Positions 18,074 to 45,665 of a stretch of DNA of 64,000 bases are shown here, in pieces. The translations under genes and the position numbers were made by a program. Each line of letters starts with the position of its first letter. Position 1 is the first letter of the stretch. The notes under the pieces were generated by a model. It was not told the DNA's origin, searched no databases, and worked only from the letters and a program-made list of their open reading frames with translations. The stretch lies in the NCBI GenBank assembly GCA_037176845.1, contig JAYKXP010000099.1, positions 62,001-126,000 of the forward strand, read 5' to 3'. The stretch is from Paramarasmius palmivorus. Lineage: Eukaryota; Basidiomycota; Agaricomycetes; Agaricales; Marasmiaceae.

Positions 18074-19714
18074 TCACACTGCTGACTCCTCTCTCGGTCT
18101 GCGCGAGAACAACGAGCGGAATGAGGTAACCGAGGGTACCGGTGTTTCCGTTTCAGAGGTAAGGCGTGCTAGGGATACCACCAAGCCGAGCGCAACAACA
18201 CTCAAACCGATGGCGCAGTACAGACCCGCGTAGGCAGCGAGGACGCACAGACCGTTTGCAGCCAAGAGACCAAGACCCCACAAATGGAAAGTCGTTGGGA
18301 GTGCGTATGCCACAGCAAGGATTTGGAAATCGTATTCCTCAGAATGGACGGTACTGAGATGTGCAAACTATCACAGCAGGAAACTATGAGTAACAAGATC
18401 CTGAAAGGAAATCCAAGTACTCACTGCTTCGCTTGCGGTGATGTTTTGTAGGGCCTTGTACCGGTGTACAAGAATGGTAGACGAGAGGATACTCGCTGAG
18501 AAGAATGCCAAAGAGGCAATGGCCAGCGGCGAACATTGCAAATATTGGAGCAAGATGAGGTGTAGCCTACAAAAAACCAATGTAAGCAATTGAAACCCAT
18601 AGTGATACGGAGAGCTTACAAGACACAGCAGAAGGCCTCGAAGGAAGTCCTACGCCAGTCACGTACGGAGCTGGTGATGAACGGTTGCCATTGAGCAATG
18701 TAAACTAGGCGGTCGACAAAGATGTCTTTCAGTTTGCGATTATAACGTCCCGCAGTTTTGAAGGTGAGAAGGTCACAAAGACCGAAAGTCTTTGTGGTCT
18801 CTGAGGTACCATAAATAATTGTCTGGTCACGAGAAAGTCTGGCAACTTCTTGCCCGTGATGGATTTCAAATCGGTTGCGGTAGACCGTTCGCCAAATGCG
18901 AGCTAATGTCACGGTCAGGGTGGTGTAATAAATGAGGCATTTGTACGTACCAAGAGCGCATACTTGGTAGCCATCGTGGGTGTGGTTCCGTGCACCCTTT
19001 GCAACTTCTAATAGTTGACGGCACTCTTCCAGAGACCAGAAGTAAGTAGAGGTCTTTGAGGTAATTTGGTCTGCAAAATGGAGATTAGTTTGCTGCGCCG
19101 GAATTGCGGGTGGAACCACCAACCTGTCACGGCATGAGAGAGAACACAGATCAGATTATCTGCAGATTTCGCAGGCAGTCCACCGAAATGCATGGGGAAA
19201 TATTCAACGTGGATCCAGTAGAGTTCTGCAAGTGCGATTTCTGTATGTAGTCCTGTCAAATCAAGATCCGGGTGACGTGTGATGACAACGAACTGAGGTG
19301 AGAGTCGGAATCCACATCCGGAAGCCCCAAGGACACAGTATCCACCTCCTCCAACCAGAATTGCGTTTGAGTGGCGTGGTTCACGAGGTAGTAGGAGCAT
19401 CCATCTTCTTCGATACAAATAAAAAGTTCAATACGTTCGGAAAGTGGGATTTGCTTTTCTTCGAGAATGGCTTCGATATGTTTGGACCAGTAGAGCACTT
19501 TTTCGAGGGTCACCGAATTGTAAAGATAGGACTCCGTGACAATTCGGAGCGGTGCATTGCAGAAGAAGTAAAGCTGGCCCTCGGGGTGAGTATATGGTGA
19601 CCAGCCTGATGGTAGATATGGTGGCCTAACAATGACTATTAGCGACCTGGAATACCAATGAAGATGTCTAGACCACTGACTCTGGTTCCGAGGTATATGA
19701 GTATGTAGGTGCAA
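18074..19714 (-). CDS. WW-like multipass membrane protein C
   Basis: This is a third member of the WW-like membrane family and more diverged than A and B. Near the N-terminus (about 19625-19570) PPYLPSGWSPYTHPEGQLYF gives a clear Leu-Pro-x-Gly-Trp...His-Pro-Glu-Gly motif, as in A and B. Next come IPLSERIELFICIEEDGCSYY and LVNHATQTQFWLEEVDT (19450-19340). Downstream exons contain LHTEIALAELYWIHVEYFPM and WSLEECRQLLEVAKGA, then hydrophobic segments (for example SPLAIASLAFFSASILSSTI) and a final Leu/Ala-rich membrane helix region before SARRPREESAV-like basic residues at 18074. A short first intron (GT at about 19661, AG at about 19632) joins His-Trp to Pro-Pro-Tyr. The true 5' exon could lie further upstream. 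Confidence 0.68.
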
Positions 19715-20723: not shown

Positions 20724-21404
20724 TTTCAAAGTCATGTACATAAGTTGATATGTCTGGTCCAAAGATGATGCTTTGTCTCGCAAGTTTTGCTGGCTCGGTT
20801 GCTTGAAATCGCCCAGCGCAGCACCATGTCGAATATCGGTTCTAACCGAAAAATCGGTGACACAGCTTTCGCATCTTCCATTCAGACATCTCAGCAGCCT
20901 CCTCTGAGCATTGTCGGTCTTACGCAGATACCGCTCCGACATTCGGTGGAAGTCTGGCTATTACAGCTATACGGAAAATCCATAGATTTCTTCGGAGCTC
21001 TTCCAGGTGGTGTCATCTCAGGTATTCGTGTTGAAGGTGTGAAACCAACATACAAGCCATTCATCATCATATGACCTATTTTCGTATATCTGCTTCAGCG
21101 CGCACGTCTTCCAGCGTCCCTGAACATACGGATACAATTTATTTTTTTTTATTCAGACCGAGGAGCGCCTTACAGCTCATCACGATGTAACATCAGCTTG
21201 ACACTCAGTGACCCGCGCGGAGACTGATACTACTGGAAACGCTGGGATGCATGAGTCCAACATGGGTTTATTCATCAGTTAGGCCCACTACCGGGGGAGT
21301 CGGCCTCGGACAAGTCGAGATCCCGAACATCGAACAGTCATGATGATACACATATACGCCGCCGTTCGGGTCCAAAGGCCTCGATGCGATGCCTGCTCGA
21401 GAAG

Positions 21405-21412
21405 TATAAAAG
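21405..21412 (+). promoter_or_regulatory. TATA-type element, distal, unit 1
   Basis: TATAAAAG lies within a block strongly conserved between the two duplicated units (GATGCCTGCTCGAGAAGTAT precedes it in both). It is about 670 bp upstream of the tiny gene's start, so it may drive an unrecognised transcript rather than that gene. Confidence 0.4.
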
Positions 21413-21979
21413 GTCGTACTCGTGACGGGCTAGGTTAGGCCAGAGCAGCATTTTTCGTTTCTCAAAGACGAAATGAGGGTACACGATTTCCTTAGACGAG
21501 CGTCACGAACCGTGCATATAGAGTGGAGAAGCAGCTTTCCAGGGTGTGTATTAAGGGTGTAGTTGGCGCCTAGCAACTATAGTATGGATTCAAGATTGGG
21601 CCTTCGAAATCCAAAGAAGCGGGCGGTTATCAATGATTTTGAGAACGATAGACGCCTTCAATAACTATATGCACGGTGCTTCTTGGGTGCCATTGAACCT
21701 GTCAAGAAGAAATTAGACTGTTGTTGAAAGCGTCTGATGCGGGATGAGCATCCACCTCATCTAACAGTTATTAACATCTATTGGTGCTATACCGATTCAT
21801 CGCCAGTAGGTTTAGAATCGGCGAAGTTGATACGGGATCATGGATATTAGATGAATTGTACATCCTCCAATCTGCGAACAGTTTCTACACCTCTGAAGTA
21901 CAGGAGATATAGCACATAAACGGCCTGTCTATCAATGCTGTGGCCATTTTTATTCTAATATCTGAGGCTTGGATTGCGG

Positions 21980-21987
21980 TATATAAG
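21980..21987 (+). promoter_or_regulatory. TATA box of tiny gene copy 1
   Basis: TATATAAG lies 100 bp before the ATG at 22080. The other two copies of this gene have an equivalent element 89 and 111 bp before their start codons. Confidence 0.55.
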
Positions 21988-22079
21988 ACACGGATCCACA
22001 ACAGTTGTAGATTACTCACCAAATACCCAAAAACTTACAAGCTTTACTCATCACTACCCGTCAAGCAACCCGACGACGC

Positions 22080-22423
22080 ATGACAGTATATCTCGTCAAA
22101 CGCCTTTATAACCATGTAAAGTAGGTCATCATCGCTCATCCTGGATGTCAAAGACGGAGATCTTACCTCTATACTAGGACGCATCTCGCGCTTGCCAGAT
22201 CAGGGTCCAAGGAAGGAGCTGAGTAGGTGTCTTCGCTTGATCAACGTGGTGGACTACGCTGACAATCTGATACTTTAGTTGGCTGGCAAAGAAGTTTGTG
22301 TAACACCTACCGGCTGTATTCCAAAAGGCTCACATCGCACCTTCTACCCCTAGGTTCCGCCCCAAAGGACAGCAGTCCAATACCGCAAGCGGTTCAAAGC
22401 CCGTCAAACCGAAGCCCAAGTAG
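22080..22423 (+). CDS. Tiny Lys/Pro-rich gene, copy 1 (splice donor damaged)
   Basis: This is a member of an unrecognised three-copy family. Exon 1 (22080-22120) encodes MTVYLVKRLYNHVK with a phase-2 GT donor. Exon 2 starts at 22178 and encodes THLALARSGSK. Exon 3 (22354-22423) encodes FRPKGQQSNTASGSK and then PVKPKPK before the stop. In the intact relative at 28755 exon 2 ends TCCAA|GTAAGT, but here the same place reads TCCAAGGAAG, so the GT donor is lost. Read-through would add EGAE and stop at 22226, giving a product of about 29 residues. Exon 3 stays open in the expected phase. Either a non-canonical donor is used or the copy is a pseudogene. Confidence 0.55.
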
Positions 22424-23466
22424 ACGGCCAAGGAGACGGATTCCGGATTGTATGCATCATTCCACATGCTGATAGGAGTAGCTTGACCATATGTATGCTC
22501 GATTCGCTCAATATCATGCTCTAGCCTATGAACATGTCTGATCTTCGCGGCTGAGGATTCCACAAAAGAAAAGAAAAAACAAACTCCGTACCTCGGAGCT
22601 GTCTGGAGGTGCCTTGACAAATTTCGCACACTCGAGATCTCCTTGGCGTTTTTTCAAGTTCTTCTCTGTAGCTGAATGCACTGGTTTGAGCTTGAAAGCT
22701 TGAACATTTAGAATGACTGCGTGTTTCAAGGATTTGCCCAGCCGATTTCGCGGCCAATTTCGATTCCTGTCTCCGTGTTAGACTATTCGCCGGGCCATTG
22801 ATACGCAGATAGTGAATAAGTGAATGCTCACCTCGAAGTATGAATCTGATTCTTTAGTTGGATGACAAACAAGAGCATGTGAGGCGTGAAAGCGCGCCGG
22901 GTGTCCAAATTGACGTTGTAGCCATAGATTGGCAGTAAAAAGTCAATGCCTGAGACTGGGAGGGGTACTAGGGAGCATCAGAACTGTCCACGCCCCAGAC
23001 TACAGGCCCTAATAATACCATCAATATCACCCGTACCAGGTTAAGGCGCTAGGCCCGAGTTCGTGTCATCTATCGATCCGAGGTCACAAGCTACAGCCGA
23101 ACGTCAAGTTGTTATAGTAGCTGCACCGCTGCAGGCGGTAGAGTTTTGACTGGACGAGGACGTTGAAGTAACGGTCCAAGGAGCGACCCAATTCAATGAA
23201 TCACGGGATCAGGCGAAATTCGAAATTGCCTGCCCCGGTCCGGCATTGAATTCGAGGTTGTTCGTTAGCGCGAATGTTATCCAGTGACCCTGAATATACG
23301 GACATGAGGTTTCTTGAATTCAGGACGAGGAGCGCCTTACGGCTTATCGCGATGTAACAGCAGCTCAACAGCAGCTTGACGCTCAATGACCCCCGTGTAG
23401 ACTAATACCAGCCCTGGGGACGATACAAGTTGAGATCCGATCCGGATGCGATGCCTGCTCGAGAAG

Positions 23467-23474
23467 TATAAAAG
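23467..23474 (+). promoter_or_regulatory. TATA-type element, distal, unit 2
   Basis: TATAAAAG is the counterpart of the element at 21405, with the same flanking sequence. It lies about 640 bp upstream of tiny gene copy 2. Confidence 0.4.
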
Positions 23475-24020
23475 GTCGCTCCCGTGATGGGTCAGGGGTA
23501 GCATTCTTCATTTCTCGAAAAATGAAGTTGCACCGATTTCCCTTGATGAGCATCTATGAGCATCCTGAACTGTGCGTAATCGTGTAAATACCCAATCAAA
23601 CAGCTTGAAAGGTGTTTTGAATTAAGTGCTTATTGTAAGTCCATGCTTCGAAAGCCAAATAAATGGGCGTTTACCAACAGGTATGCATTCCATGGAAGCT
23701 TTGAACAACTATGGGTACGGTATTCCTTGACTTCCATTGAACCTGTCCCTGTCAGAGAAGAGTATTAGACTATAGATGAAGCGTTATTGTGAACAAGCAC
23801 TTGCACACCTCATGTAAGAATTGTCGATAGCTATGGCAATGAATTCCATAGCCGCTGTCAAAAAACATAATCCTCTTGAGAACTCAGTATAACATTCAAT
23901 TCTGCGAACGCCGACCGAGTTTTTGCTGCTCTGACGCACAGCCCCCATACAGGAGATACAGCACCATGCAGTGCTGTCAAAATCTTGCATGACCTTCAGG
24001 TCTCGTAAATGACTTGATAA

Positions 24021-24028
24021 TATATAAG
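24021..24028 (+). promoter_or_regulatory. TATA box of tiny gene copy 2
   Basis: TATATAAG lies 89 bp before the ATG at 24110, at the position conserved in the other copies. Confidence 0.55.
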
Positions 24029-24109
24029 GGGCCCACAACGGCTGTTTTCGTTCAATCACAACCACTTGTTGACATTCTACACAACTACCCGCGATATCCT
24101 CCACGACGG

Positions 24110-24451
24110 ATGACAATATATCTCGTAAAACGTCTCTACAACCATGTAAAGTAAGTCATCATCACATCTTCAGCGTTCAATGCGGCGATCTCACCTTCAT
24201 ACTAGAGCTCATCTCGCCCTTGCCCGATCGGGGTCCAAGGAAGGTACTGAGTAGGTGTCTTCGTTCGATTGATATGGTGTATCATGCTGATATTTTGGTG
24301 CTTTAGCTGGTTGGCAAAGAAGTGCGTGCAATATGTAAAGCGTACCGGATATATCATAGACTAATGTTGCACCCCCAGATTCCGTCCCAAAGGGCAGCAA
24401 TCCAACACTGCGGTGAGCGGAAAGCCGCCGACTAAACCAAAGCCCAAATAG
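24110..24451 (+). CDS. Tiny Lys/Pro-rich gene, copy 2 (splice donor damaged)
   Basis: Exon 1 (24110-24150) encodes MTIYLVKRLYNHVK and ends at a good GTAAGT donor. Exon 2 starts at 24206 and encodes AHLALARSGSK. Exon 3 (24379-24451) encodes FRPKGQQSNTAVSGKPPTKP and ends KPK. As in copy 1, the donor after TCCAA reads GGAAGG instead of GTAAGT, and reading on gives EGTE and a stop at 24254. A different GT three codons on (at 24244) would put exon 3 out of frame. Most differences from copy 1 in the coding parts are silent or conservative, which suggests past selection on the protein. Confidence 0.55.
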
Positions 24452-25370
24452 CCTCTAGTAGGAGGGATGTTGTTGAAGGGGGGCTTCATTGGAAGCCATC
24501 CTATGCTAATACTAGCAAAATCATGTTAATTATCATAATCGATTCACTTAATGCTCTGCCTTATGAATATGTCTGGTCAGTTTTCACGACTCGAAATTCC
24601 AGAACGAAATGAGGTTCGTACCTTGCAACACTCTCAGAAACTGTTATTTGGATGAGCCTCGAAGGGAGTCTGTCAGGTTCTTCTCTGCACCCGGATGCAC
24701 TGGCTTTGAGCAACAACTTGTTTCGGGGATGCGCCTAGCCGATTTTGCGACGAATTCCGATTTCTATCTCCGTGTTTGACTACTCATCGGGCCATTAATA
24801 TGCGGACAGCGAATAAGTGAATGCTTAAATTGGCGCACTTCGAAAGATGAATCTTTCAGGATCGTGTTGATGGTTTGATTCTTCGCAGCTGGTTGGAGAA
24901 TAACTGCGTGTGAGGCGTGAAGTGCACCGGGTGTCCAAATTGACGTTGTATCCTGAGATCTTGTCCCAAAAGACCACAGTTCGAAATACGACGACCGGCA
25001 ATGGTGGAGAGCCAAATAGCAAAGCCTGGGGCTCGGAGGAGGATTAAACTTTGCCCACGATCCAGAAACTATATGATTTGTTTGTTATGTAGGTCATATC
25101 ACCCACATACCAAGGAAATGGTGCTAGGCCCGAATTCGCTTTATCTGTCAAACTTCGAGGTCTCAGCCGGATTTCGAGTTGTGATAGATTTGTGCGCTAT
25201 AATTGATAGGAACGTCTCCATATGTATCACGAGTGGGTGTAGTTGCAGGCGACAGATTTTTGACTACGACGTTGAGATCAAGGTTGAGTACGTTGAGTTT
25301 CTGTGGGCCAATCACGGGATCAGGCAATTGTGCCTGCCCTCGGCCGGCAAATTCCGCAACTTTTCGATTC

Positions 25371-25579
25371 ACATCTCGTCCAGGCCTAGCCATGTCGGCC
25401 TCTTGTAACCTGGACACTCCTCACATCGGTCTCTCCAAGGTCTTTCTGCCAAATGCTATGTCTTGGGCGTCTCACAGCGATGATACTGGGCTGCTCTGCT
25501 TCTGTCTAGACTGCTCTTCCAAAATCGTACAAAAGCTGGTACGACCAATGAACGACAGCACAACTACTCATCGAAGACA
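25371..25579. other. Short intergenic region upstream of COX8
   Basis: This stretch follows the end of duplication unit 2 and precedes the Cox8 start. No motif stands out. Confidence 0.4.
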
Positions 25580-25988
25580 ATGTCCACTCTGCCGCTGAAG
25601 CGTCTTACTTCTTCAATACCTCTCCGAGCAGCCCGTACTCTACAAAAATCACCCATTCGAGCAATTCATTTCGATCAGACCGCTAAACCGTTTCAACCAG
25701 GACAGGTCAAGGTGTGTCATCGTATTGACTGGGCTGCTCAATCCCTCCTCACTCAATGGTCGTTCATATAGCACCTACCCTTCGATCCAACGAATACAAG
25801 AGCTTTTAAAATAAAGTTCCTCGCATATTTGGGCACAGGATTCGCGTTGCCTTGGATAGCTCTTTGGTGGCAATGGTACGTTGAACTACATTATTGGTGG
25901 ACCACAAGCTGATACTCTCGTTTTTGGAAGGCACCGCCCAGGAGGACTAAAGAACCCCGATGGGAAGTGGCCTGGCTGGCTGCCTTAA
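25580..25988 (+). CDS. COX8: Cytochrome c oxidase subunit VIIc/Cox8
   Basis: This is a small accessory subunit of respiratory complex IV in the mitochondrial inner membrane. Deduced exons 25580-25713, 25801-25875 and 25931-25988 join with matching phase (2 and 2) into about 88 residues. The N-terminus (MSTLPLKRLTSSIPLRAART) is Arg/Ser-rich and acid-free, as expected of a mitochondrial presequence. The core AFKIKFLAYLGTGFALPWIA followed by LWWQW is the single membrane helix with the family's G-x-GF-x-x-P-[FW] signature, and the tail HRPGGLKNPDGKWPGWLP is hydrophilic. The alternative acceptor 13 nt downstream would delete AFKIK and is less likely. The exons are too short to stand out as open frames. 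Confidence 0.85.
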
Positions 25989-26143
25989 GTCGGCCTTCCT
26001 CGGCTTCTTTGATTTCTTAGCACCGATTAATCATCTCCCGCTGTCTGTACAATATCCCTTGTATAAGTATAAATCAATCTTCTTAATTTGCCCGTATATA
26101 AGTACAACCACAACCCAGCTGGATCACATCCCCCACACATATC

Positions 26144-27180
26144 ATGCCGCAAACCATCCTCCTCGTCGGCGGAACAGGCACCACTGCCACCCCGTTAGTC
26201 GAAAAGCTTCTCTCCACTACAGATGCCACTGTTATCCTCACGTCTCGCAAAGGAGCGTCTGGTATCCCTGCAAAACTTCTTGAATCCACAGCTACTCGCG
26301 ACCGAGTGAGAGGTGTTGTCTTCAATTGGAACGACCCGAGAACATATGGAAACCCTTTTACCATCACCGACACTATCGACGCAATGTACCTTATCCAACC
26401 ATCGAGCTGCACGGTAGTCGAAGACCCAAACTCGGTGTTGAACCAGGCACTAACGAAAGGATTGAAGCGAGTAGTATTGATGAGCGCGACGGTATGCGAG
26501 AAGGGAGGATATGGGCCGGGCAAGACGCACGCTTATCTTGAGAAATTGAAAGAACAGGGCAAGCTAGAGAGCTTCGCTGTCTTGAGGCCAAGTTGGTTCT
26601 TCTGTGAGTGCACCGCTTCGTTTTCGTTTTCATTCTCTAGTGAAGTAATCTGACAATCTTGTGTAGCCAACTTGACCGACGGATACGACAGCTACATCCG
26701 AGATCAGGATATGTTGGTGTCTGCAGCCCAAGACGGAAAGCTAGGATGGGTGGGAACCGAAGATATTGCGGACGCTGCCTACGATGCTCTTGTGGTACCA
26801 TCGAAAGAGCTCTGCGAAGAATATATCATCACAGGGCCAGAGTTGCTCAGTTATGACGACGTACGCATTCTGAATCTCCTTCCTTCAGCTTGAGCACTTT
26901 TAACCAGTGGTGCGTCCTACAGGTTACCGCCCTCCTGACCAACACCCTATCTCGTAAAATAACCCATCGAAGAATCTCTCTCGCCGACTTTGGCACCAGC
27001 GAACATAGCAAAGCGATGGGAGAAATCGATCTGCAGATTGCCGGAGGCTTGGAAGAGCGAATTTTTGCGCTCAAGGATGTTCCACCCACAAATGGTAAGG
27101 GAGGTGTGAAGCGTTGGATTGGCACCAGGCGTTTGGAAGGGTTTTTGGAAGCGAACAAGGAATGCTGGAGGCAGAGCTAG
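26144..27180 (+). CDS. NmrA-like NAD(P)-binding protein
   Basis: The start MPQTILLVGGTGTTATPLVE carries the G-G-T-G-x-x nucleotide-binding loop of the NmrA/atypical SDR family. Later motifs are MYLIQPSS, RVVLMSATVCEKGGYGPGK, FAVLRPSWFF and WVGTEDIADAAYDAL, the usual NmrA layout. Exons 26144-26603, 26667-26860 and 26923-27180 join in frame to give 303 residues. Fungal relatives are often labelled festuclavine/agroclavine dehydrogenase-like, but no other ergot-alkaloid gene is nearby, so that role is not supported; a general NAD(P)H-dependent reductase or redox sensor is as likely. The upstream stretch 26030-26130 contains TATAAGTATAAAT at 26062, a plausible TATA region. Confidence 0.85.
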
Positions 27181-28643
27181 GGATAGCCGATATGGAATAG
27201 CACCCAGAAATTTGTCTCATCCAGAGAGAAACTATTCAGGATGTTCGGAAGTTTGAACCTGCAAGACCCTGGCCAATGCGGCTGAATTCGATTTCGTGCG
27301 ATGCTGAGGCCTTAACGAGTAGACAGAATTGAGGAACACCTATAGCCTGAAGCTTATAATTAAGCGGAATTTGCCGACAATCGCCTGGTCCCAACCCTAG
27401 GGTTGATTTGCACCTTGGTCAAACCCTTCCAATTACTGCCATTCGGTTGTGTCTCTATCGCAGTCTGTGGGCGAGACAAAGTTGAGAGGAATATAGGAGC
27501 TTGGTGTGCGTTGAAACTCATCTCAAATTCGGAACGAGTTAATATAAATCCACGCCTTTTCAGATACTTCAGACTCGGGATCGAATCTTTTGGCCAGTAG
27601 GCTACCTGAAAAGACGTGCAGCCAAGTCACAGAGGACCGTTCAAAGCCACCCATGCATCTACTCTGGCTTTTTTCCGGCTTACAATGTTCCCGAAGAGAC
27701 GACTATACATAGTACATTGCCATCATGAGGGCTCTTCAAACTTCCAGTCTTGAGTGGTCCTTCTACTTCTTGGCAAACTCCCACGTCATGGTGTCAAAAG
27801 TCTTCTTACGGATACTTTGGAGCATCCTTAGTGCGCCCAGACTTTGAATTTAGCCCTAACCAATCCCTTTTGTCAACCGGCGGTGCGATATCGAATCGGA
27901 AGACTGATGATTTCAAGGTAAGTGCTATCAAACAATTGAGAAAGACAAGCGCCTTACGCGGCACGGTACAGGAGTAACAACATGGTGGCGCTGCATAGAC
28001 TATGCATATGATCGAACGCCCATAGGGATGACTGGAGATTTGGGAGTTGATTTCCCAGTGACCATCGACATCAGCTTCTCATCAAACCTAAACGCCTTCG
28101 GGCGTATCACTTCATCATCCATCGCACAGGTCAAACGCGAACTTCGGGGTCTATCAGGTACTCGTGAAGACTCCCAACGGCTCTTAGTTTCGGTCAGTGA
28201 AGATTCCGCCACGAGTTTACGAGAATCGAAGCATAAAACAACAATCAATACAACAATATCTGCAGCATTCCTGTGTGACCACTAGCGCCCTACCACGGAA
28301 CTCAATACAAAGAATACCACCAGGCAATTTGGAGAAGAACACGTTTTGATTGGAACAGCAGAAGAGACGCTGGTGCTACAGGTCTTCAGTTTCTTCAACC
28401 CCTCAAAAACACTGCTACAAGTCTGGCTTTACACATCTTTGCCTCCACTTCGTAAGTACAATCTTGCCTCAGAACTTCCAACTTGATATCCCAAAGGAAT
28501 AGATTAGGATAATTGCCTCATTGCGACCCGTTGGAGAGATGGCCGAGGCCCAGTGGTCGAGGCAGGGCAGCCTGACGTCGTCGAATCTCTGCACCGCAAG
28601 TACTATACCGAGGCACTTCGATGCTATGCACGATTCTTTTCAG
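27181..28643. other. Region with unassigned open segments
   Basis: Open stretches at 27750-27977 (+) and 28028-28285 (+) could be joined by an intron beginning GTAAGT at about 27916, and an open segment at about 28300-28450 contains GATGLQFLQPL-like residues. The first has no Met in its frame after the upstream stop, and I recognise no domain. This may be a degraded gene. A tRNA-like string near 28536 is treated under rejected items. Confidence 0.35.
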
Positions 28644-28651
28644 TATAAAAG
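28644..28651 (+). promoter_or_regulatory. TATA box of tiny gene copy 3
   Basis: TATAAAAG lies 111 bp before the ATG at 28755, matching the arrangement at copies 1 and 2. Confidence 0.6.
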
Positions 28652-28754
28652 GCGACCGGCTCCCTGTGACTCGATTCAAGAACCCTCAGCTCCTCATCAC
28701 TCCAACACACGCTCGCTGCGAAACCTATCTAAAACCTATCCTACTCATCAATAG

Positions 28755-29127
28755 ATGTACCTTGCGAAACGACTCTACAATCATGTCAAGTGAGTAGTTC
28801 TGATCAGCATTGAAGATCGCAAACTGATTTTGCTGTCGCTTAGGACTCATCTTAGCCTTCTCGTTACACACGGAAAAGCGGGGTCCAAGTAAGTATCTCA
28901 GTCCAAGCAACGTGTTCCGTGCTGACTATTTGGTCTCTTTTAATAGGAAGGTCGCGGAAAAGTCGGTGTGAAGCATATCCCGCCAATATCCAACCGCTGA
29001 CATCCCTTCCTCTAGATTTCGCCCAAAGGGCCCACCTTCAAATACCGCGACTGGGCCAAAGAAACCCCGGCCAACGAGGCCAAAGCGTGATGGAGAACCA
29101 GTTGATAATGTACAGACAGATGTGTGA
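28755..29127 (+). CDS. Tiny Lys/Pro-rich gene, copy 3 (intact)
   Basis: Three exons join with canonical GT..AG sites and matching phases: 28755-28789 (MYLAKRLYNHVK), 28844-28888 (THLSLLVTHGKAGSK) and 29016-29127 (FRPKGPPSNTATGPKKPRPT, then RPKRDGEPVDNVQTDV). The product is about 63 residues, strongly basic, with a Pro/Lys/Arg-rich second half and a short amphipathic start. The first 12 residues, the GSK end of exon 2 and FRPKG..SNTA are shared with copies 1 and 2, and intron positions are identical. There is no signal peptide or CaaX end, so a secreted effector or mating pheromone is unlikely. A basic presequence-like start would allow mitochondrial or ribosomal roles, but that is speculation. 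I do not recognise the family. Confidence 0.72.
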
Positions 29128-29228: not shown

Positions 29229-29958
29229 TCACTCTTCTACAGACTCCAATTCCATCCCTTCGAATCTAACGGTCAGCTCTCCACCATCACCGCCTGTTTG
29301 CGGCAGTGGCATTGCAGCAAAAGCTCCGATCATGACTTCCTTTCCCTCATCTTGTCCTTCGAAGCCCCACGTCACCTGCCTAAAGGGCGTCCTGCCTTGA
29401 CCCTCGCCCTCTCCACTGATAAAGACCCATAGTCCATCAGGCTTTCTCTCCATCTCGACAGTGATTTTGGGGTCGCCCCAATGCTGGAGACTCCAATCCG
29501 CAAACGGATTGGCAGTGACCATAGATGCAAGCAAAGAGCCATCTTCCAATTCCATGCCAGCTTTGATCCACTGAGCAGGATCGGTAGAATTGGTTTGCGG
29601 AGATGTGGTTCCAGGATAGTAGAAGACTAAACCACCATGAGCGTATTGTGATTTCCAATCTGCAGATACAGTCACTCTAAACCGATTGAACGATTTCCTG
29701 GGGAAGCGTGAGATCACGCCTCGTTGACCGTGGATTCAGGCTTGTAAAACAGACTTACAGTGGAATCTTTGTCGCATAGATCACCCCGGTGAAATCGTCC
29801 CTTCCTCCAGCAGTCGGAGGTGTACGCCAGATATCCGTTCCTGGTCTCGCGGTGAGATTGAAAGCCTCGCCCGTGAGTGGGTTTTCTGGAACTGGAGGAT
29901 GATTTGGTGCCGCGTTAATGAGCGTGAATGCGAAAGCTGCTAGTTTGCCTAACTGCAT
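29229..29958 (-). CDS. DUF1349 family protein, tandem copy 1
   Basis: This is a concanavalin-A-like beta-sandwich protein of the DUF1349 family; its function is not established. Exon 1 (29958-29759) encodes NPLTGEAFNLTARPGTDIWR and DDFTGVIYATKIPL. Exon 2 (29697-29229) encodes SFNRFRVTVSADWKSQYAHG, GGLVFYYPG, QWIKAGMELEDGSL, WSLQHWGDPKITVEMERKPD and the C-terminus FEGMELESVEE. The single intron is phase 2 and falls at the same codon in all three tandem copies. The start MQLGKLAAFAFTLINA is mildly hydrophobic but short, and the third copy lacks it, so a cytosolic protein is more likely than a secreted one. Confidence 0.88.
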
Positions 29959-30442
29959 AACGTATTCCCTTTGAGGTCTGGGGCTCACCAGCGAGACCCA
30001 TGTCATATAAGAGAACAGTTACGTTTGTCACCGTAAGGGATACTGAGCGGAGACAATTTTCTAAACGGTCGTTCACTACCAAAAGAGGCAAATACAAACA
30101 CGGACTTTGGCGGAGGAGCTTTGCGAATCTTCAAAGCTTCAGCACCTTGTATTGCGGGGCCGTTAGGCCCGGTCGGCATAAACCTTAAACTAACCCAAGC
30201 GAGAAATGACCACCGCACCCCGAAGAAGGCACGATATCGTGAGGTGCGGAAGGAATTGTATCGACGCGGGGGGTTCAACCGAAGCGGACCTGTCACAGCC
30301 TATCTTCAATGAATCACTGGTTTACTGGAATAATGGTAATGTGGATTGGAATATCGACATCCTATAAGAGCACAAGTCAGTAATCTGGTCGTTTCCAGAA
30401 GAAAATAGAATTGCGGACCTTTGACTAGTACTAGTTGCTCGT
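29959..30442. other. Spacer between DUF1349 copies 1 and 2
   Basis: This is the promoter side of copy 1 and the 3' side of copy 2. Short open frames on both strands overlap and show no domain. CATATAAGAGA near 30003 is close to the copy 1 start on the wrong strand to serve as its TATA box. Confidence 0.4.
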
Positions 30443-31160
30443 TCATCCTTCAATAGTTTCCAATTCTAGCCCTTCAAAAGTCACCGTCAATTCACCGCCG
30501 TCTTCGGTACCTTCCTGAGGCAACGGCATTGCAGTGAACACCCCGACCATAGCTTCTTTCCCTTCGTCTTGTCCTTCGAAACCCCAAGTGACCTGCCTGA
30601 ATGGTGATCGACTTCGACCTTCCCCTTCGCCGCTGACGTAGATCCACAGACCATCGGGCTTCCTCTCGATTTCAAGGGTAATCTTGGGATCGCCCCAGGG
30701 CCTGAGACTCCAATCCGAGAAAGGATTTGTAGCGACCACAGACGCAAATACAGCATCATCCTCGAACTCGATACCAGTTTTAATCCATTGAGCAGGATAG
30801 GTAGAGTTGATTTGAGTTGATGTGGTACCAGGGTAGTAAAAAACTAGGCCGCCTTGTGCGTAGCGCGACTGCCAATCTGCCGAAGCAGTAACTTTGAGGC
30901 GATTGAACGATTTCCTGTCGAAGCGTTAGATCGTGTTTCATGTCTGGATGTGGGACATACAATGGGATCTTCGTCGCGTAAACCACTCCGGTGAAGTCGT
31001 CTTTACCTCCGGCAGTTGGAGGCGTACGCCAGATGTCGGTACCTGATTTAGTCGTGAGGGTGAAAGCTTCGCCTGTGAGCGGGTTTTGAGGAACTGGGGG
31101 ATGGTTCGGTGGAGCATTGATGAGCGTGAAAGCGAGAGCGGTCAGTTTTCCTAGCTGCAT
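30443..31160 (-). CDS. DUF1349 family protein, tandem copy 2
   Basis: This copy has the same two-exon structure as copy 1. Exon 1 starts at 31160 (MQLGKLTALAFTLINAPPNH) and runs to IPL at about 30963. The intron ends with CGACAG before GAAATCGTTC at about 30916. Exon 2 encodes SFNRLKVTASADWQSRYAQG, GLVFYYPG, QWIKTGIEFEDDAVFASVV, WSLRPWGDPKITLEIERKPD and FEGLELETIEG. It is closer to copy 3 than to copy 1 in exon 2, but shares its N-terminal extension with copy 1. TATATATA-like sequence near 31221 (minus-strand upstream) is a plausible TATA box. Confidence 0.88.
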
Positions 31161-31436
31161 TGTACCCTGATCCTTGCCTGTCCTCCGAAGTTTGAGGGGT
31201 TCAAAGAGACACGAGGGCCCTTATATATACACACGAGAAGAATCCGTGTTTGTCACTGTCAACGGTCATCAATGACCTTCGGGCTGATCAATGCTTGGCA
31301 CCAATTCAACTTTCCAGTACATTTTCATGCTTTGTAATGATACATCGAGTGTCATGTGTTACCTGGCCATGGGAACCAAGTCAACGATTTGGCCGAATTT
31401 GACGAGAAGGAACGTACCAGTCTTCATTGCTTGTAA
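31161..31436. other. Spacer between DUF1349 copies 2 and 3
   Basis: It holds the upstream region of copy 2, with TTATATATAC at about 31218, and the 3' side of copy 3. No gene is evident. Confidence 0.45.
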
Positions 31437-32140
31437 TTAGATAGTCTCTAGTTCCAACCCTTCGAACTTGACTGTCAGTTCTCCACCATCTGCTGCACCT
31501 TCCTGTGGCAATGGCATCGCAGTGAACACTCCGACCACGACTTCCTTTCCTTCGTCTTGTCCTTCGAAACCCCACGAAATTTGTCTGAACGGCCCTCTGC
31601 TTCGACCTTCACCCTCTCCGCTGATATAAACCCACAAGCCATTCCGTTTCCTCTCGATTTCGAGCGTAATCTTGGAGTCTCCCCAGGGCCTGAGGCTCCA
31701 ATCCGAAAAGGGATCAGCCACGACAACAGACGCGAACAAGGCGTTGTCTTCAAATTCGATGCCAGTTTTGATCCATTGTACGGGATTGGTCGAGTTCGTT
31801 TTGGGAGATGTGGAGTCAGGGTAGTAAAATATCAGGCCGCCCTGAGCGTATTGCGATTTCCAATCGGCAGAGATCGTTACTTTGAGGCGGTTGAACGATT
31901 TGCTATTTACGCGTCTTAAGTCAAGATGCACTGATAAAGAAGATGCACGACGCACAGTGGGATCCGCGTTGCATAGATCGGTGCAGTAAAGTCATCTCTG
32001 CCGCCTGCGGTTGCCGGGGTACGCCAGATATCAGAGCGCGGTTTGGCTGTTAGGGTGAAAGCTTCGCCTGTAAGCGGGTTTTGAGGGAGTGGGAGGTGGT
32101 CTGTGTGGGCGTTGGTGAGAGTGAATTTGGGCGTTGTCAT
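31437..32140 (-). CDS. DUF1349 family protein, tandem copy 3
   Basis: The start MTTPKFTLTNAHTDHLPLPQ lacks the MQLGKLAA extension seen in copies 1 and 2 and resembles the plain N-terminus usual for the family. Exon 1 runs to IYATRIPL (about 31960), and exon 2 covers SFNRLKVTISADWKSQYAQG to FEGLELETI at 31437. Conserved stretches are WKSQYAQGGLIFYYP, WSLRPWGDSKITLEIERKR and WGFEGQDEGKEVVVGVFTAM. It is transcribed away from WW-like gene B, so 32141-32752 is a shared divergent upstream region. Confidence 0.87.
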
Positions 32141-32622: not shown

Positions 32623-32752
32623 GAATTCCTTTGGGCGTCGGACATCAATGCATCAACATGAGGCGAGCATAGAGCTGTGGAATTGCAAGGGACCCTGTCT
32701 GTGCGTCCTCTTCCTTTGCGTTCGTGGACTTGTCCCTGGAACGACCTCACCA

Positions 32753-35700
32753 ATGACTGCTCCAGTTCTACAGATCTTCCTCAAGGCTTTACAACGATTC
32801 TTACGAAACAACGCCCTCCTACGACTCCCAGTTCAACGACTCTTAATTCTTTGGTCGTATCTGACGCGGTATGCGAGGAAAATTCGGACCAAGGGCAGCT
32901 CAGATCCTTCAAGACATCCAGAGGATGAAACCTCATCTGAAGCGCCCAGTGTTGTGGAAGAACAACAGAATGAACAGGAACGATCCACCATCATTTGTGC
33001 GAGCGAAGCACCATCAAGCCTGCATCCATATCCCCCAAGTACGCTAGGTGCATCAGCATCTTCGCAAGATGTTCGAACCGAGACCTTGAGGCCCACTTTC
33101 AGCCGTTCCCACATCTCTTACCCCACGACTTCCGGTAACCTTAATGGATCGCGCACTGCCCTGACGGCCAGCCCTGCAGCATCGGTTTCTCGCCTTTCTA
33201 TAACAATACCACGTGCAGAGTCTACCCACTTGGCCGTGAATCAGGACGATGCAGCATCGGTGGCCTCTCGAATATCTATTATTGCACCCGATATAACGGC
33301 TGAGCCTACCCCATTAGTTGAGTCGCCCTCACAGGGGTACACTCTAACGGGCGAGGTTACTACATCCCCTGTCCAAGAGTCGGAAAATGTCACTTTGGCA
33401 GGTGAGGCCGTAGACTTGACTGGTCCAGGTCTCTGTGCGACATACGATGCCTTTTATACCGCCCTTCCGGAGAAGTTTGCCAGGTATGACCGACCGGACA
33501 TTATGTGCGTGACACCCGGTATTCTTTTGGCAGACTATGCTAACCATTTGACAGACCGTCGCAAGTGACAACATACGAACTTCCGCCTATGACGGTGCGC
33601 TTTGATAAGTTCGTACTCACCTCTGACACTTCGACACCGACTAACTTTTACGAAGTGGAAAACTTCCTCTAGGCTGGAAAGAGCTTTTGCATCCCGAAGG
33701 CGCCAGATATTTCTTGTATGAACCCAAGGTTTGCTTTCCCGGGTATTGAGGTATATCGCGTTTACTTACTTGACTTCCTAGAAACTGTATACTGACGCCA
33801 ACATCTATAATACCAAAGTTCTTTCGTATGTCACCAACCTCATCAGCCAATGCGACCAATATCTCCGCTCGCGCAACATCCGTCTCTCTTCGCACGTCAA
33901 CATTGTCTTTGACATATGTGGCGAACTAGATGAAATGTGGTGCCAATACTATCTTGCAGACCACGCCACGAGAACAGTATTTTGGTTGGACAAGTTTGAA
34001 CTCTCTGAAGAGAATTTTCATCTCTGGTCGGAGGTCAAAGGTGTCACAGAGATGTCACACGTTCGTAGGTCCATCTATCCTCACTCGATGGACCCAATTC
34101 ACAGATTTCTCGTTCAGGTCACGCGATCGAGGTTCAGTACTGGTGAGCTTCAATAAGCAAGCTACCAGGTTTAATCTCATCTTTCGCTAGGCATCATTGT
34201 GATTTGTTCCCGGACTCCTTTTCTTTGGGTCTGTCTCACGTCGATGAGCTTCGGGATATTCTAATTCACAGTATCGGAGGTGATTCTCGTACTTAATTTG
34301 CCCCGGTGCACTTCTCAAAGTTATTGATCATAGATGTCGTCACATCCTTAACGACCACGGTTCCTTACGAGGTATATGATCTGCAACAGATGTTGAAGGT
34401 CGCCAATAGCATTAGAAGTAAGTCATCATTCAAGTGTTGTTGACCAGGCACTGAATGCGCCGAATACTTCGATAGAGAACGTAGAGAGTAGCAAGTGTGC
34501 CTCAGTGTATAGTGAGTATCAAAACTTGGATAATAGCTGTGGGCTCACCTCCGCAATATAGGCAGGTTGATGTACCTTTTTGGTATGCTTGTCTCCGTTG
34601 TTCTATGGCAATCAGCGCTCACTCTTCACTAATAGCACGACAACGATTCTTCAACTTTCACGGTCAACCAGCGGCGCGTCTTGATCGAGATCGCTCTATA
34701 TATCATCCTTCTGATTACAAGCCCCCCCGCACGCCTCTGTTGCGCATCCTTTCGCCTCTGATGTTCTCCGCTCCGGATACCCACTGTCGAGCACTAGACA
34801 AGCTTTGGGTAGATGGAATAATACATGCTACTTCATGGAACAAATTTATCAGCAACATGAATACTGAATGGGAACAGTTGATTCTCTTCGTGCGTGTCCT
34901 TGAACATGTTTCTTTTTCCCGCGGAGCTGAGTAGGATATGATCAGGGCACGGTGCTTCTCAATGCAAACGTCGCATTCTTAGCCATCCAATCCGTAGATG
35001 AAGATACCGCGAACCCGGATCGGTCTCCGGCGCAAATAGCAAGTTACCTATCTGTAGTGGCTAGTATCGGCAGTGTGATTATTGGTTTAATGCTCCAGAG
35101 GAAGAACAAAATCAAGAACAAAGAAGCGGCCGACGATGCAGTACGTGACACTTCACACATATCACGACCTAGAGCAAACTAATACATCTCAAGGCCGTAT
35201 TCTTGCATTCGTTCATGAAAAACAGACTAGGATTGGAGACGTTAGCAATCCTATATTCAGTCCCTTACGCTCTCTTGATGTGGGGGTACGTCGCATTTCC
35301 GCCAGTCAATCAATGTCCTGACGTAAGGCCTGCCTCTTTCAGAGTCATCTTGTTCCTCGCTGGTTTCTCGTCCATGTGTCTCTATCATTCTGCTATTGGC
35401 ATCACACTTTTGGTCTGCGGTGCTTGGCTTATCATCGCACTCCTTGTAGTCTGGTGCATCTTCACCCTTGCTCAGTGGGACAAGCGATTCAATGCACAAG
35501 ACACGGCTTGGGACAAACTCATCATCGGAATACAGGAAGCTGTTCGCGCAACTACTGAGTTCTCCGAGCGGCAGCTGGTAGCCTTGGGGTTAAAGAACGA
35601 AAAAGAGGAGGAACCGGTTGTGAGGCTGACTGCACCGGTGAGGAGAATGAGCCTTCCGGTGAAGAGGATGAGCGAAGCGTTAAGAAGAGCGTCACGGAAG

Positions 35701-43353: not shown

Positions 43354-45665
43354 ATGGCTTTCAACAACTCATCTGGCTTCACTATCACAGGCGGGAGGTT
43401 TACACACGTAGTGGGGGATCAGCACATCAACCACGTCCAGGGTGATCTAGTGCAGTATCTGGGTCGGGAAGAAAGGGTGCCTACCATTTGGGATGAGGTA
43501 CGTCGATTCTTCGTTAACTAATCGAGCCCCTACTCATAGACTGCTAGTACACGCGGGTTCCGACAGGCAGAGTGTACATAGTGCGTACCGTTGGCGATAC
43601 AACAGTAAGAAGAGACCACGGTGAAACGGAATACGTTTGGAAGAAGATCGAAGCTCGTCGCAACATCAGCATTGTCAAGATTCAAGGAGAAGATACGTGT
43701 TCACATTTCGTATATGTTCGCTATAGCGGTCGTGATTGTTTCGAGGTTAGTACAGCACATATGTTTCTTGCCGTCATATGTTGAACATCACAATCGCATA
43801 GGCGTTCCAACGCGACTTTGAGGAATTCTCTCATGTCAAGTACGCCATGATTGTCCTCCCTTGCAGCCGATTCACTGAACTGGATATCTATCTAGGAATG
43901 CGAATGTTGTCCAACTGTTCGGCTATAACGACAGCCAGTCTTTTCCAGCTTTGTTATTTTACGAGGGTAGGAGGCGTTTTAGAATGATTCCATACTCGTC
44001 GCTAAATTCTGCGCTCAGAATTGGTTCCAGTAGCATTCATCTTTGAAAGAAACAACTTCTCATCACTTCTGTATACCTATTTCGAATATCAGGTTTGTCT
44101 CAGTCCCCATCTTATCTGACTTCTCAACTTATCTTTCGTTGCAGTTTGGTGTAGACCAACTTGGGGATGACAAAATAGTACGCAGGTTTTGTTTTGTCTC
44201 TCTGAAAGTAGCTGACAGTTTTCTAAGGATTTTGGTGATTTGTGGGTGCATGCGAGGTCTGGCCATTTACGAACAGGACCTTACGTCAAATACGCGTCGA
44301 CCCGGACTTACTTCGCGGCTGGGTTCGAGACCAACACAGAGAATAACGGCGCCCTTTCCATTCAGGCTTTCAGCGACCCCGAAGCTGTCTTTGATTATCT
44401 TAGGCAGTTCCTCTCCACACATGATATTCTTCGTGGCATTGCCTGGTCCAATCAACACACGACGGAATGGCTAGAGGAAGAAGAAGCAGTGTTCGTGTTT
44501 AGACATTTTCCCGGCACTATCTACAGGTGGACTAGCCGAGAAGTTATTGCAAGGTGGCCTGTAAAGGTCAAGGAATGGTTCTACGGAATCCCGTCTTCGT
44601 ATCACCTGCCCGAAGATGTTCTAAATAGTGGTTATTGTCTGAACAATCTCTCATTGCGGTATGTAAATGTATTCGAGGCGAGATCCACGGTCTAAGAGGC
44701 ACTTTTGCTCTAGGTACATGTTTACCCCAGCAGACATTTCAGAGTGTCCTAGCTTCAAAATACAATATCCACTTTATCCTAGATGGCGTGCTGCGGCAGA
44801 ATCTTGGCTATCGCAAGCGCATTGTGTGCTGAATTACCTTGGGATTGAGGAAAAGGAATGGCGGGACTGTTGTGAGCTTTCATGTCGTTGCCTATACATC
44901 ATCTCCTAACGGACGGGCCAGTTATCTTGGGAGCCCTTCTTCTTGACTTTGAGCGATCCTTCAAGCCCAGTCAACAGATCCGAGCCCTGGACAGGCCCCT
45001 CTACCTCTTCATCCGCCCAATTCCCTCTGTTTCGCAGTCACAGGAGATCTGGTCTTCCTGGGCAAAAGGAAATAAATGCTACTGGTCTTTTGACATCCAG
45101 GGAAAAGAAGAGATGTCGGAAGCTACGCAGGCATCCCTGAATCTTCCTACATACAAATGTCGTTTGGGGATTTCTCATAACTGGTGGGATCCTACTGCCC
45201 AGGTTTACAACGCCGTGAAAATGCTTCATCTCCACAACGGCTTTGATCCCTCGACGCCGAGCCTCAGCAAATCTCTTGATCTTCCTATATATGAACTCGA
45301 TGAGAATCATCCTTCGTTCGACGAGATCCGGGGTCCACAGCGTTATGTACCGGTTCCACGTCCCCTGTCGGAATTTATAGATTCTTTGGAGGGCAAGGCC
45401 AAAAAACCGTCGGGCGCACGCTCGACTTCCACTCATAATTCCTCTAGTGGGAGACAGAAACCGCCGGAAGAAGTCACAGACTCATATGTCATGGTGGATG
45501 AGGACACTCCGCTCGAGGAGGCATGGGAACAACAGCAGGGGTTTGCAAGCAGATTAAAGGTAAAGTACATTTCGTTACATACCACAATCAACAGTCTGTT
45601 AACGAATTACATACTAGGGTGCCTTTCATCGCGTTTTTAGTCTAAAAGACCCGCGAGAGGAATAG
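43354..45665 (+). CDS. Kinase-like protein D with 'GDQH' N-terminus
   Basis: One of three paralogues (D, E, F). The N-terminus SGFTITGGRFTHVVGDQHIN followed by HVQGDLVQ is a short beta-rich motif also seen at the start of many agaricomycete NACHT/STAND proteins. Next is a kinase N-lobe-like part: TGRVYIVRT, RNISIVKIQGEDTC and FQRDFEEFSHVKNANVVQLF, then PALLFYEELVPVAFIF. No HRD or DFG motif follows. The C-terminal half is family-specific: RTGPYVKYASTRTYF, FRHFPGTIYRWTSREVIARW, LDRPLYLFIRPIPS and LGISHNWWDPTAQVYNAVKM. A disordered tail with VMVDEDTPLEEAW follows. The last intron (about 45560-45619) joins LK to GAFHRVFSLKDPREE, ending at 45665. At least seven introns. Probably a pseudokinase or unrelated fold; function unknown. 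Confidence 0.72.

What the first reader, a model, noticed from the sequence alone, without database searches (positions are those of the whole stretch)
22080..29127. Undescribed three-copy family of tiny spliced genes
Three loci (22080, 24110 and 28755) encode the same exon pattern: exon 1 (Y)LxKRLYNHVK, exon 2 THLxL...GSK, exon 3 FRPKGxxSNTA and a Pro/Lys-rich tail. Intron positions and phases are identical, and each copy has a TATA element 89-111 bp before the ATG. Conservation falls in the exons while introns diverge. The protein of about 63 residues is too short and too split for standard gene finders, so a wider family may be missed in genomes. I do not recognise it.
Basis: partly seen in the sequence, partly recalled or inferred. 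Interest (0 to 1): 0.8.

Follow-up and report, generated by a model that had tools for sequence, protein, structure and literature searches.

The report
Three tiny four-exon fungal genes
A mushroom-type fungus carries three copies of a tiny, heavily spliced gene for a small, highly charged protein that matched nothing in the collections searched; the pattern of changes between copies shows the protein itself is being preserved, though what it does is not known.

Summary
All three copies (22080-22423, 24110-24451, 28755-29127) are intact spliced frames.

Coding is strongly supported. Over 42 ungapped codons, copies 1 and 2 differ at 21 bases, 17 in third positions, with 2 amino-acid changes; chance gives 13.4 on average, never 2 or fewer in 20,000 trials. 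None of 1,611 non-exon slices of the duplication shows such phase bias. Copy 3 is older but keeps exon 1 and the first 11 residues of exon 4 nearly unchanged.

No relative was found in Pfam, the PDB (copy 3), about 5.8 billion proteins, viral contigs, prokaryote genomes or elsewhere in its genome. Other mushroom genomes could not be searched. The product is basic (pI 10.5-10.7), lacks cysteine, CaaX and any signal-like stretch, so it is no pheromone precursor or hydrophobin. Most likely it is an intracellular orphan microprotein that binds an acidic partner; that function is inference. Splicing and expression remain untested.

The parts
22080..22423 (+). Copy 1, whole gene from ATG to stop: exons 22080-22120, 22178-22222, 22279-22293, 22354-22423; 56 aa
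   Evidence: joined exons give one open frame of 171 nt; introns 57, 56 and 60 nt, GT...AG
24110..24451 (+). Copy 2, whole gene: exons 24110-24150, 24206-24250, 24307-24321, 24379-24451; 57 aa
   Evidence: joined exons give one open frame of 174 nt; introns 55, 56 and 57 nt
28755..29127 (+). Copy 3, whole gene: exons 28755-28789, 28844-28888, 28947-28961, 29016-29127; 68 aa
   Evidence: joined exons give one open frame of 207 nt; introns 54, 58 and 54 nt; in-frame stop directly before the ATG
22279..22293 (+).
   Evidence: 13 of 15 bases shared with copy 2, both differences synonymous (codons)
24307..24321 (+). Microexon of copy 2 (15 nt)
28947..28961 (+). Microexon of copy 3 (15 nt)
   Evidence: the 15-nt exon is the only in-frame candidate of 6 nt or more shared by all three copies (a 3-nt candidate is also shared)
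21980..21986 (+). TATA element of copy 1 (TATATAA), 100 bp before the ATG
24021..24027 (+). TATA element of copy 2 (TATATAA), 89 bp before the ATG
28644..28650 (+). TATA element of copy 3 (TATAAAA), 111 bp before the ATG
21097..23074 (.). Unit 1 of the tandem duplication that carries copy 1
23267..25149 (.). Unit 2 of the tandem duplication that carries copy 2
22722..22929 (.). Block downstream of copy 1, as conserved with unit 2 as the exons are; holds a stretch (22843-22873) like the end of intron 2 plus the microexon, without a GT donor
24719..24959 (.). Same block downstream of copy 2; microexon-like stretch at 24861-24910

Best explanation
These are three paralogous protein-coding genes, each with four exons, for a small basic protein that is an orphan as far as could be searched.

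Shown: intact frames with one shared exon architecture, and strong purifying selection on the protein.

Inferred: each is transcribed from its own TATA promoter, and three short introns are removed. The microexon (5 codons) and exon 2 (15 codons) are both multiples of three between phase-2 introns, so either could be left out without a frameshift.

The protein stays inside the cell. It has an N-terminal stretch of about 20 residues without acidic residues (YLxKRLYNHVKxHL), a linker that varies in sequence but not in length, a conserved FRPKGxxSNTA block, and a Pro/Lys-rich, probably disordered tail. With a net charge of +10 to +11 it most likely works by binding an acidic partner (nucleic acid, ribosome or membrane) through the two conserved blocks. 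I give that last step about 0.3.

Copies 1 and 2 arose by an old tandem duplication; copy 3 split off earlier.
For: Open frames and splice sites in 3 of 3 copies. Copies 1-2: Sd 19.0, Nd 2.0, pS 0.61, pN 0.02 over 42 codons, differences by codon position 4/0/17. Permutation 0 of 20,000 for copies 1-2 and for copies 1-3. Exon 1 plus the start of exon 4 (22 codons) of copies 1-3: pN 0.07 against pS 0.92. Phase bias absent from 1,611 non-exon slices, maximum 0.55 against 17/21. In a scan of the whole duplication, 28 of the 30 best-listed windows lie on or overlap these exons and the other two score 0.

Microexon: without it the intron would be 131, 128 or 127 nt, whereas the nine modelled introns are 54-60 nt and four neighbour-gene introns 55-63 nt. 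Of 108 background pseudo-introns of those lengths, 19 hold some in-frame microexon of 6-39 nt, 6 a 15-nt one, and 1 a 15-nt one with a GTNNGT donor, as the three copies have.

TATA elements. Charge and composition.
Against: No transcript or peptide data could be consulted. In the scan the minus-strand reading of exon 4 scores as well as the plus-strand one (7 synonymous, 0 non-synonymous), so that exon alone does not settle the strand; exons 1 and 2 and the splice sites do. The start context is weak (C, C and T at -3; a preference for A there is recalled). Between copies 1 and 3, exon 2 is only loosely constrained (pN 0.49, pS 0.74) and the microexon shares 2 of 5 residues. A 3-nt in-frame internal exon is also possible in all three copies. 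The tail after SNTA diverges: 23 of 36 bases match between copies 1 and 2. The highest hydrophobic moment is no greater than in shuffled sequence (596, 589 and 724 of 2,000 shuffles reach it for copies 1, 2 and 3; in copy 2 the best window is not even the N-terminal one), so an amphipathic N-terminal helix is not demonstrated. No search gave a lead to function.
Confidence: 0.8

Rival explanations
1. Three-exon genes as the first reader drew them: the 15-nt microexon is not used, and the products are 51, 52 and 63 aa (arithmetic).
For: Frame is kept without the microexon because it is 15 nt between phase-2 introns. Between copies 1 and 3 the microexon keeps only 2 of 5 residues. Other small internal exons are also possible in each copy (7, 5 and 9 candidates of 3 nt or more).
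Against: It would need 127-131 nt introns where the four neighbour introns measured are 55-63 nt. The same 15-nt length, TAG acceptor and GTNNGT donor occur in all three copies, which is rare in background (1 of 108 for YAG plus GTNNGT). Both microexon differences between copies 1 and 2 are synonymous.
Confidence: 0.15
2. Mitochondrial microprotein: the N-terminal 20 residues, basic and free of acidic residues, act as an import sequence, and the mature peptide is the short basic remainder.
For: No D or E and 3 K/R in the first 20 residues of each copy (sequences). A COX7C gene lies nearby, but that is no functional link.
Against: Hydrophobic moment not above shuffles. The N-terminal block is among the most conserved parts of the protein, whereas cleaved targeting sequences usually vary (recalled).
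Confidence: 0.2
3. Basic nuclear or ribosome-associated protein whose Pro/Lys tail works as a nuclear-localisation or nucleic-acid-binding tail.
For: pI 10.45-10.67 and net charge +10 to +11; Lys/Pro tails, in copy 3 also Arg-rich.
Against: No AT-hook or other Pfam match reported at E up to 10 (the program's filters drop most matches above about 0.1). The tail is among the least conserved exon parts between copies 1 and 2.
Confidence: 0.3
4. Chance pattern or decayed sequence in a duplicated non-coding segment.
For: Other blocks of the duplication that show no coding signature are equally conserved (81-83%). Fragments like intron 2 plus microexon lie downstream of both copies.
Against: Codon-position bias and amino-acid conservation far beyond simulation. 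Copy 3, outside the duplication, keeps the same frame and splice sites.
Confidence: 0.04
5. Mating-pheromone precursor or other processed, prenylated or secreted peptide gene.
For: Size range and tandem copies.
Against: No cysteine in any copy, hence no CaaX motif; no hydrophobic signal-like stretch (highest 19-residue mean hydropathy 0.25-0.43).
Confidence: 0.02

Closest known systems
Conserved small open reading frames of fungi (survey of 31 fungal genomes, PMC7394265; listing, start of abstract and passages seen)
   Same: Proteins of at most 80 residues, often left out of standard annotation, judged by conservation.
   Different: By the passages seen, the new frames of that survey came from getorf and sORFfinder run on intronic, exonic and intergenic sequence, apparently as uninterrupted frames; a second set came from existing annotations and could hold spliced genes. 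This gene is split into four exons, the first three of 15-45 nt, so a search for uninterrupted frames would not assemble it.
Microexons of P450 genes in Phanerochaete chrysosporium (PMC1184071; passages seen)
   Same: Basidiomycete exons of 2-10 codons; that genome's P450 genes also have frequent introns of 45-55 bp.
   Different: Those lie in long enzyme genes; here the microexon lies in a gene of 56-68 codons.
Xlr2 microexon switch of Trichoderma virens (PMC11121469; start of abstract and passages seen)
   Same: A microexon in a filamentous fungus.
   Different: There alternative inclusion with different functions is reported; here nothing is known about inclusion.
Basidiomycete lipopeptide mating-pheromone precursor genes (recalled)
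   Same: Tiny genes, often several copies close together.
   Different: No CaaX end, no cysteine.

Membership tests
Functional small ORF / microprotein gene | Product below about 80-100 residues | tested here: met
   56, 57 and 68 aa
Functional small ORF / microprotein gene | Selection on the encoded protein | tested here: met
   dN 0.02, dS 1.26 between copies 1 and 2; 0 of 20,000 simulations
Functional small ORF / microprotein gene | Transcribed and translated | not testable with these tools
   No expression data for this organism were available
Functional small ORF / microprotein gene | Relatives in other species | tested here: inconclusive
   None among about 5.8 billion proteins for the alignment and for copy 1, although that set holds agaric proteins (control); unannotated DNA of other fungi could not be searched
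Fungal microexon | About 3-30 nt, usually a multiple of three (definition in the passages), flanked by GT-AG introns | tested here: met
   15 nt in 3 of 3 copies
Fungal microexon | Included in mature mRNA | not testable with these tools
   Needs spliced reads
Basidiomycete mating-pheromone precursor | C-terminal CaaX | tested here: not met
   0 cysteines in each of the three proteins
Hydrophobin | Eight cysteines and a signal peptide | tested here: not met
   0 cysteines
Small secreted protein | N-terminal signal peptide with a hydrophobic core | tested here: not met
   Highest 19-residue mean hydropathy 0.28, 0.43 and 0.25; a hydropathy proxy, no dedicated predictor was run
Mitochondrial presequence protein | Basic amphipathic N-terminal helix | tested here: inconclusive
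   Basic and without acidic residues, but hydrophobic moment within the range of shuffles
Any Pfam-A family | Profile match | tested here: not met
   0 families for 3 of 3 proteins at E up to 10 (filters drop most matches above about 0.1)

The most novel reading that the evidence does not exclude
A class of very short, many-exon microprotein genes exists across mushroom-forming fungi and escapes both gene finders and searches for uninterrupted small frames because the early exons are too short. In this family a frame-preserving microexon (and a frame-preserving exon 2) between conserved end modules lets one gene make two or more isoforms.
Probability: 0.25. Interest if true: 0.6.

Novelty: new member of a known kind. 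Interest (0 to 1): 0.36.

Why it matters
It is a well-supported example of a gene type that annotation can easily skip: four exons of which three are 15-45 nt, and a product under 70 residues. If relatives exist, the exon pattern given here is enough to search for them, and it would show how many such genes fungal annotation lacks. As it stands it is one orphan family in one genome; orphan small genes are common (recalled), so the surprise is moderate.

Tried and rejected
Rejected: chance pattern. RNA gene: no Rfam match at gathering scores in the window and no tRNA; the exon substitution pattern is codon-like. Multi-copy element: DNA searches of the own genome with the two flanks of copy 1 and with the copy 3 region found only the two duplication units and the query itself. 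A weak extra match on contig C15 (E 0.326, 37% identity) is the end of a 120-residue open frame that reads FDPAGRP where the family has FRPKG; taken as chance, not disproved. Pheromone, hydrophobin and secreted-protein readings. The conserved blocks near 21140-21230, 21383-21504 and 22722-22929 were covered by the coding scan and gave no strong signal. Reading the reverse strand of 22722-22929 by eye led nowhere. Of 11 alignment tests, 4 beat all 200 shuffles (copy 1 and copy 2 each with the block downstream of it, copy 3 with copy 1 and with copy 2); 7 did not, among them copy 1 with the block of unit 2 (49 of 200 shuffles as good) and copy 3 with that block (38 of 200), and the upstream blocks against the genes. 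Paper searches for the motif YNHVK (0 papers), for microexons in basidiomycetes (6 papers) and for small-gene surveys (0 papers, 38 papers of which 12 were listed) showed no description of this family in titles and abstract starts; I looked at passages of three papers. Only these searches stand behind that statement.

Limits: all three protein searches are used. Queries with copy 1 or copy 2 did not bring up copy 3 in the own genome and the copy 3 query did not bring up copies 1-2, so copies that far apart could be missed. A blended query did find all three, by the last part of the protein only, and nothing else.
Full report
What was checked. The three loci were read directly and the exons joined in a script. 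With it the genes have exons of 41/45/15/70, 41/45/15/73 and 35/45/15/112 nt and introns of 57/56/60, 55/56/57 and 54/58/54 nt, all GT...AG and all splitting a codon after its second base. The products are 56, 57 and 68 residues. From the shared tyrosine (residue 4 of copy 1) to SNTA the three proteins align over 42 residues without a gap.

Is it coding? Copies 1 and 2 differ at 21 of 126 bases, 4 in first, 0 in second and 17 in third positions, with 19 synonymous and 2 non-synonymous changes. Placing the same base changes at random gave on average 13.4 amino-acid changes and never fewer than 6 in 20,000 trials. Copies 1 and 3 differ at 52 bases with 15 amino-acid changes, against a mean of 28.9 and a minimum of 18. 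Outside the exons, none of 1,611 overlapping slices of 126 aligned bases of the same duplication has its differences concentrated in one phase as strongly (maximum 0.55 against 17 of 21). In a six-frame scan of the duplicated unit, 28 of the 30 best-listed windows (of 536) lie on or overlap these exons; the other two score 0. The minus-strand reading of exon 4 ties with the plus-strand one, so exon 4 alone does not fix the strand. Copy 3 aligns with copies 1 and 2 better than all 200 dinucleotide shuffles in each of two tests. This is strong evidence for a protein under purifying selection. The two end modules (exon 1 and the first 11 residues of exon 4) are most constrained (pN 0.07 against pS 0.92 between copies 1 and 3); exon 2 is loose in sequence (pN 0.49) but fixed in length.

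The microexon. Without it the introns would be 131, 128 and 127 nt; the four introns of the neighbouring COX7C and NAD(P)-binding genes are 60, 55, 63 and 62 nt (families, the second below its curated cut-off). Among candidate internal exons of 3 nt or more with introns of at least 45 nt on both sides (7, 5 and 9 in copies 1, 2 and 3), the 15-nt exon with a TAG acceptor is the only in-frame one of 6 nt or more present in all three; a 3-nt candidate with an AAG acceptor is also shared. Of 108 background pseudo-introns of the same lengths, 19 hold some in-frame microexon of 6-39 nt, 6 a 15-nt one and 1 a 15-nt one with a GTNNGT donor, as the three genes have (one search is the same count with the genes included). 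Microexons of 2-10 codons are reported for nearly one-third of the P450 genes of the basidiomycete Phanerochaete chrysosporium (PMC1184071, passages). A passage of PMC11121469 says work on fungal microexons is limited (passages). Inclusion here is inferred.

Surroundings. Copies 1 and 2 lie in a tandem duplication of about 2 kb. Synonymous sites differ at pS 0.61 and several flanks are at 50-58% identity, yet three blocks without coding signature stay at 81-83% (73 of 90, 91 of 109 and 169 of 207 aligned bases). One of them, downstream of each gene, holds a stretch that resembles the end of intron 2 plus the microexon (27 of 31 bases in unit 1; above all 200 shuffles within each unit, but not between copy 1 and the block of unit 2), so the family may have had further copies or partial copies. 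Copy 3 lies about 4.3 kb downstream of copy 2, beyond COX7C and the NAD(P)-binding gene and before a DUF1349 triplication. Each copy has a TATA element 100, 89 or 111 bp before its ATG.

Relatives. No Pfam family at E up to 10 for any copy, no PDB chain for copy 3, the only one sent, no protein among about 5.8 billion for the three-sequence alignment (11 candidates) or for copy 1 (2 candidates) at E up to 10. As a control, the spliced 97-residue COX7C next door found two agaric proteins in that set (Marasmius fiardii and Moniliophthora perniciosa), so fungal proteins are present, though a gene missed by annotators would not be. No relative in viral contigs (307 stretches matched a pattern, none confirmed) or prokaryote genomes (32 matched, none confirmed). 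In the own genome (68.3 Mb, 393 contigs) only these copies appear, apart from one weak match on contig C15 taken as chance. The single-copy queries did not find across the copy 3 divide; a blended query did.

What it is and how it works. I conclude that this is a real three-member family of four-exon microprotein genes, undescribed as far as my searches reach, in an agaric near Marasmius/Moniliophthora (placement only). The proteins are basic (pI 10.45-10.67, net +10 or +11) with no cysteine, no hydrophobic signal-like stretch and no CaaX end, which argues against pheromone, hydrophobin and secreted-protein readings. An intracellular protein that binds an acidic partner through two conserved blocks is the most likely mechanism, at about 0.3. 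Mitochondrial and nuclear/ribosomal versions cannot be told apart here. Novelty is that of a new member of a known kind, the unannotated small orphan gene, with an unusually fragmented structure.

Noticed in passing
21140-21230, 21383-21504 and 22722-22929, with partners in 23267-24959: Three blocks of the tandem duplication keep 81-83% identity although they show no clear coding signature and several flanks are at 50-58%; the second holds a TATA-like AGTATAAAAGG. They may be regulatory elements or an unrecognised transcript.
   Followed up: partly
29229-32126, minus strand: Three tandem segments 70-74% identical in DNA; two of them were scanned and match DUF1349.
   Followed up: partly
44240-44695 (+), 46598-46978 (-), 57396-57875 (+): Three reading frames share a motif like LPGTxYxRxSRxV and a preceding LSxxxxxRGI-like stretch, seen by eye; an unidentified family.
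   Followed up: no
4595-5038 (-), 34497-34934 (+), 18616-19122 (-): Reading frames sharing FNFHGQPAARLDRDRS-like sequence, the third more diverged, seen by eye. Short inverted DNA matches also link 32747-32844 with 122-219 and 33780-33913 with 5643-5776.
   Followed up: no
25580-25988 (+): Spliced COX7C (cytochrome c oxidase subunit VIIc) gene with introns of 60 and 55 nt, used here as a control.
   Followed up: yes
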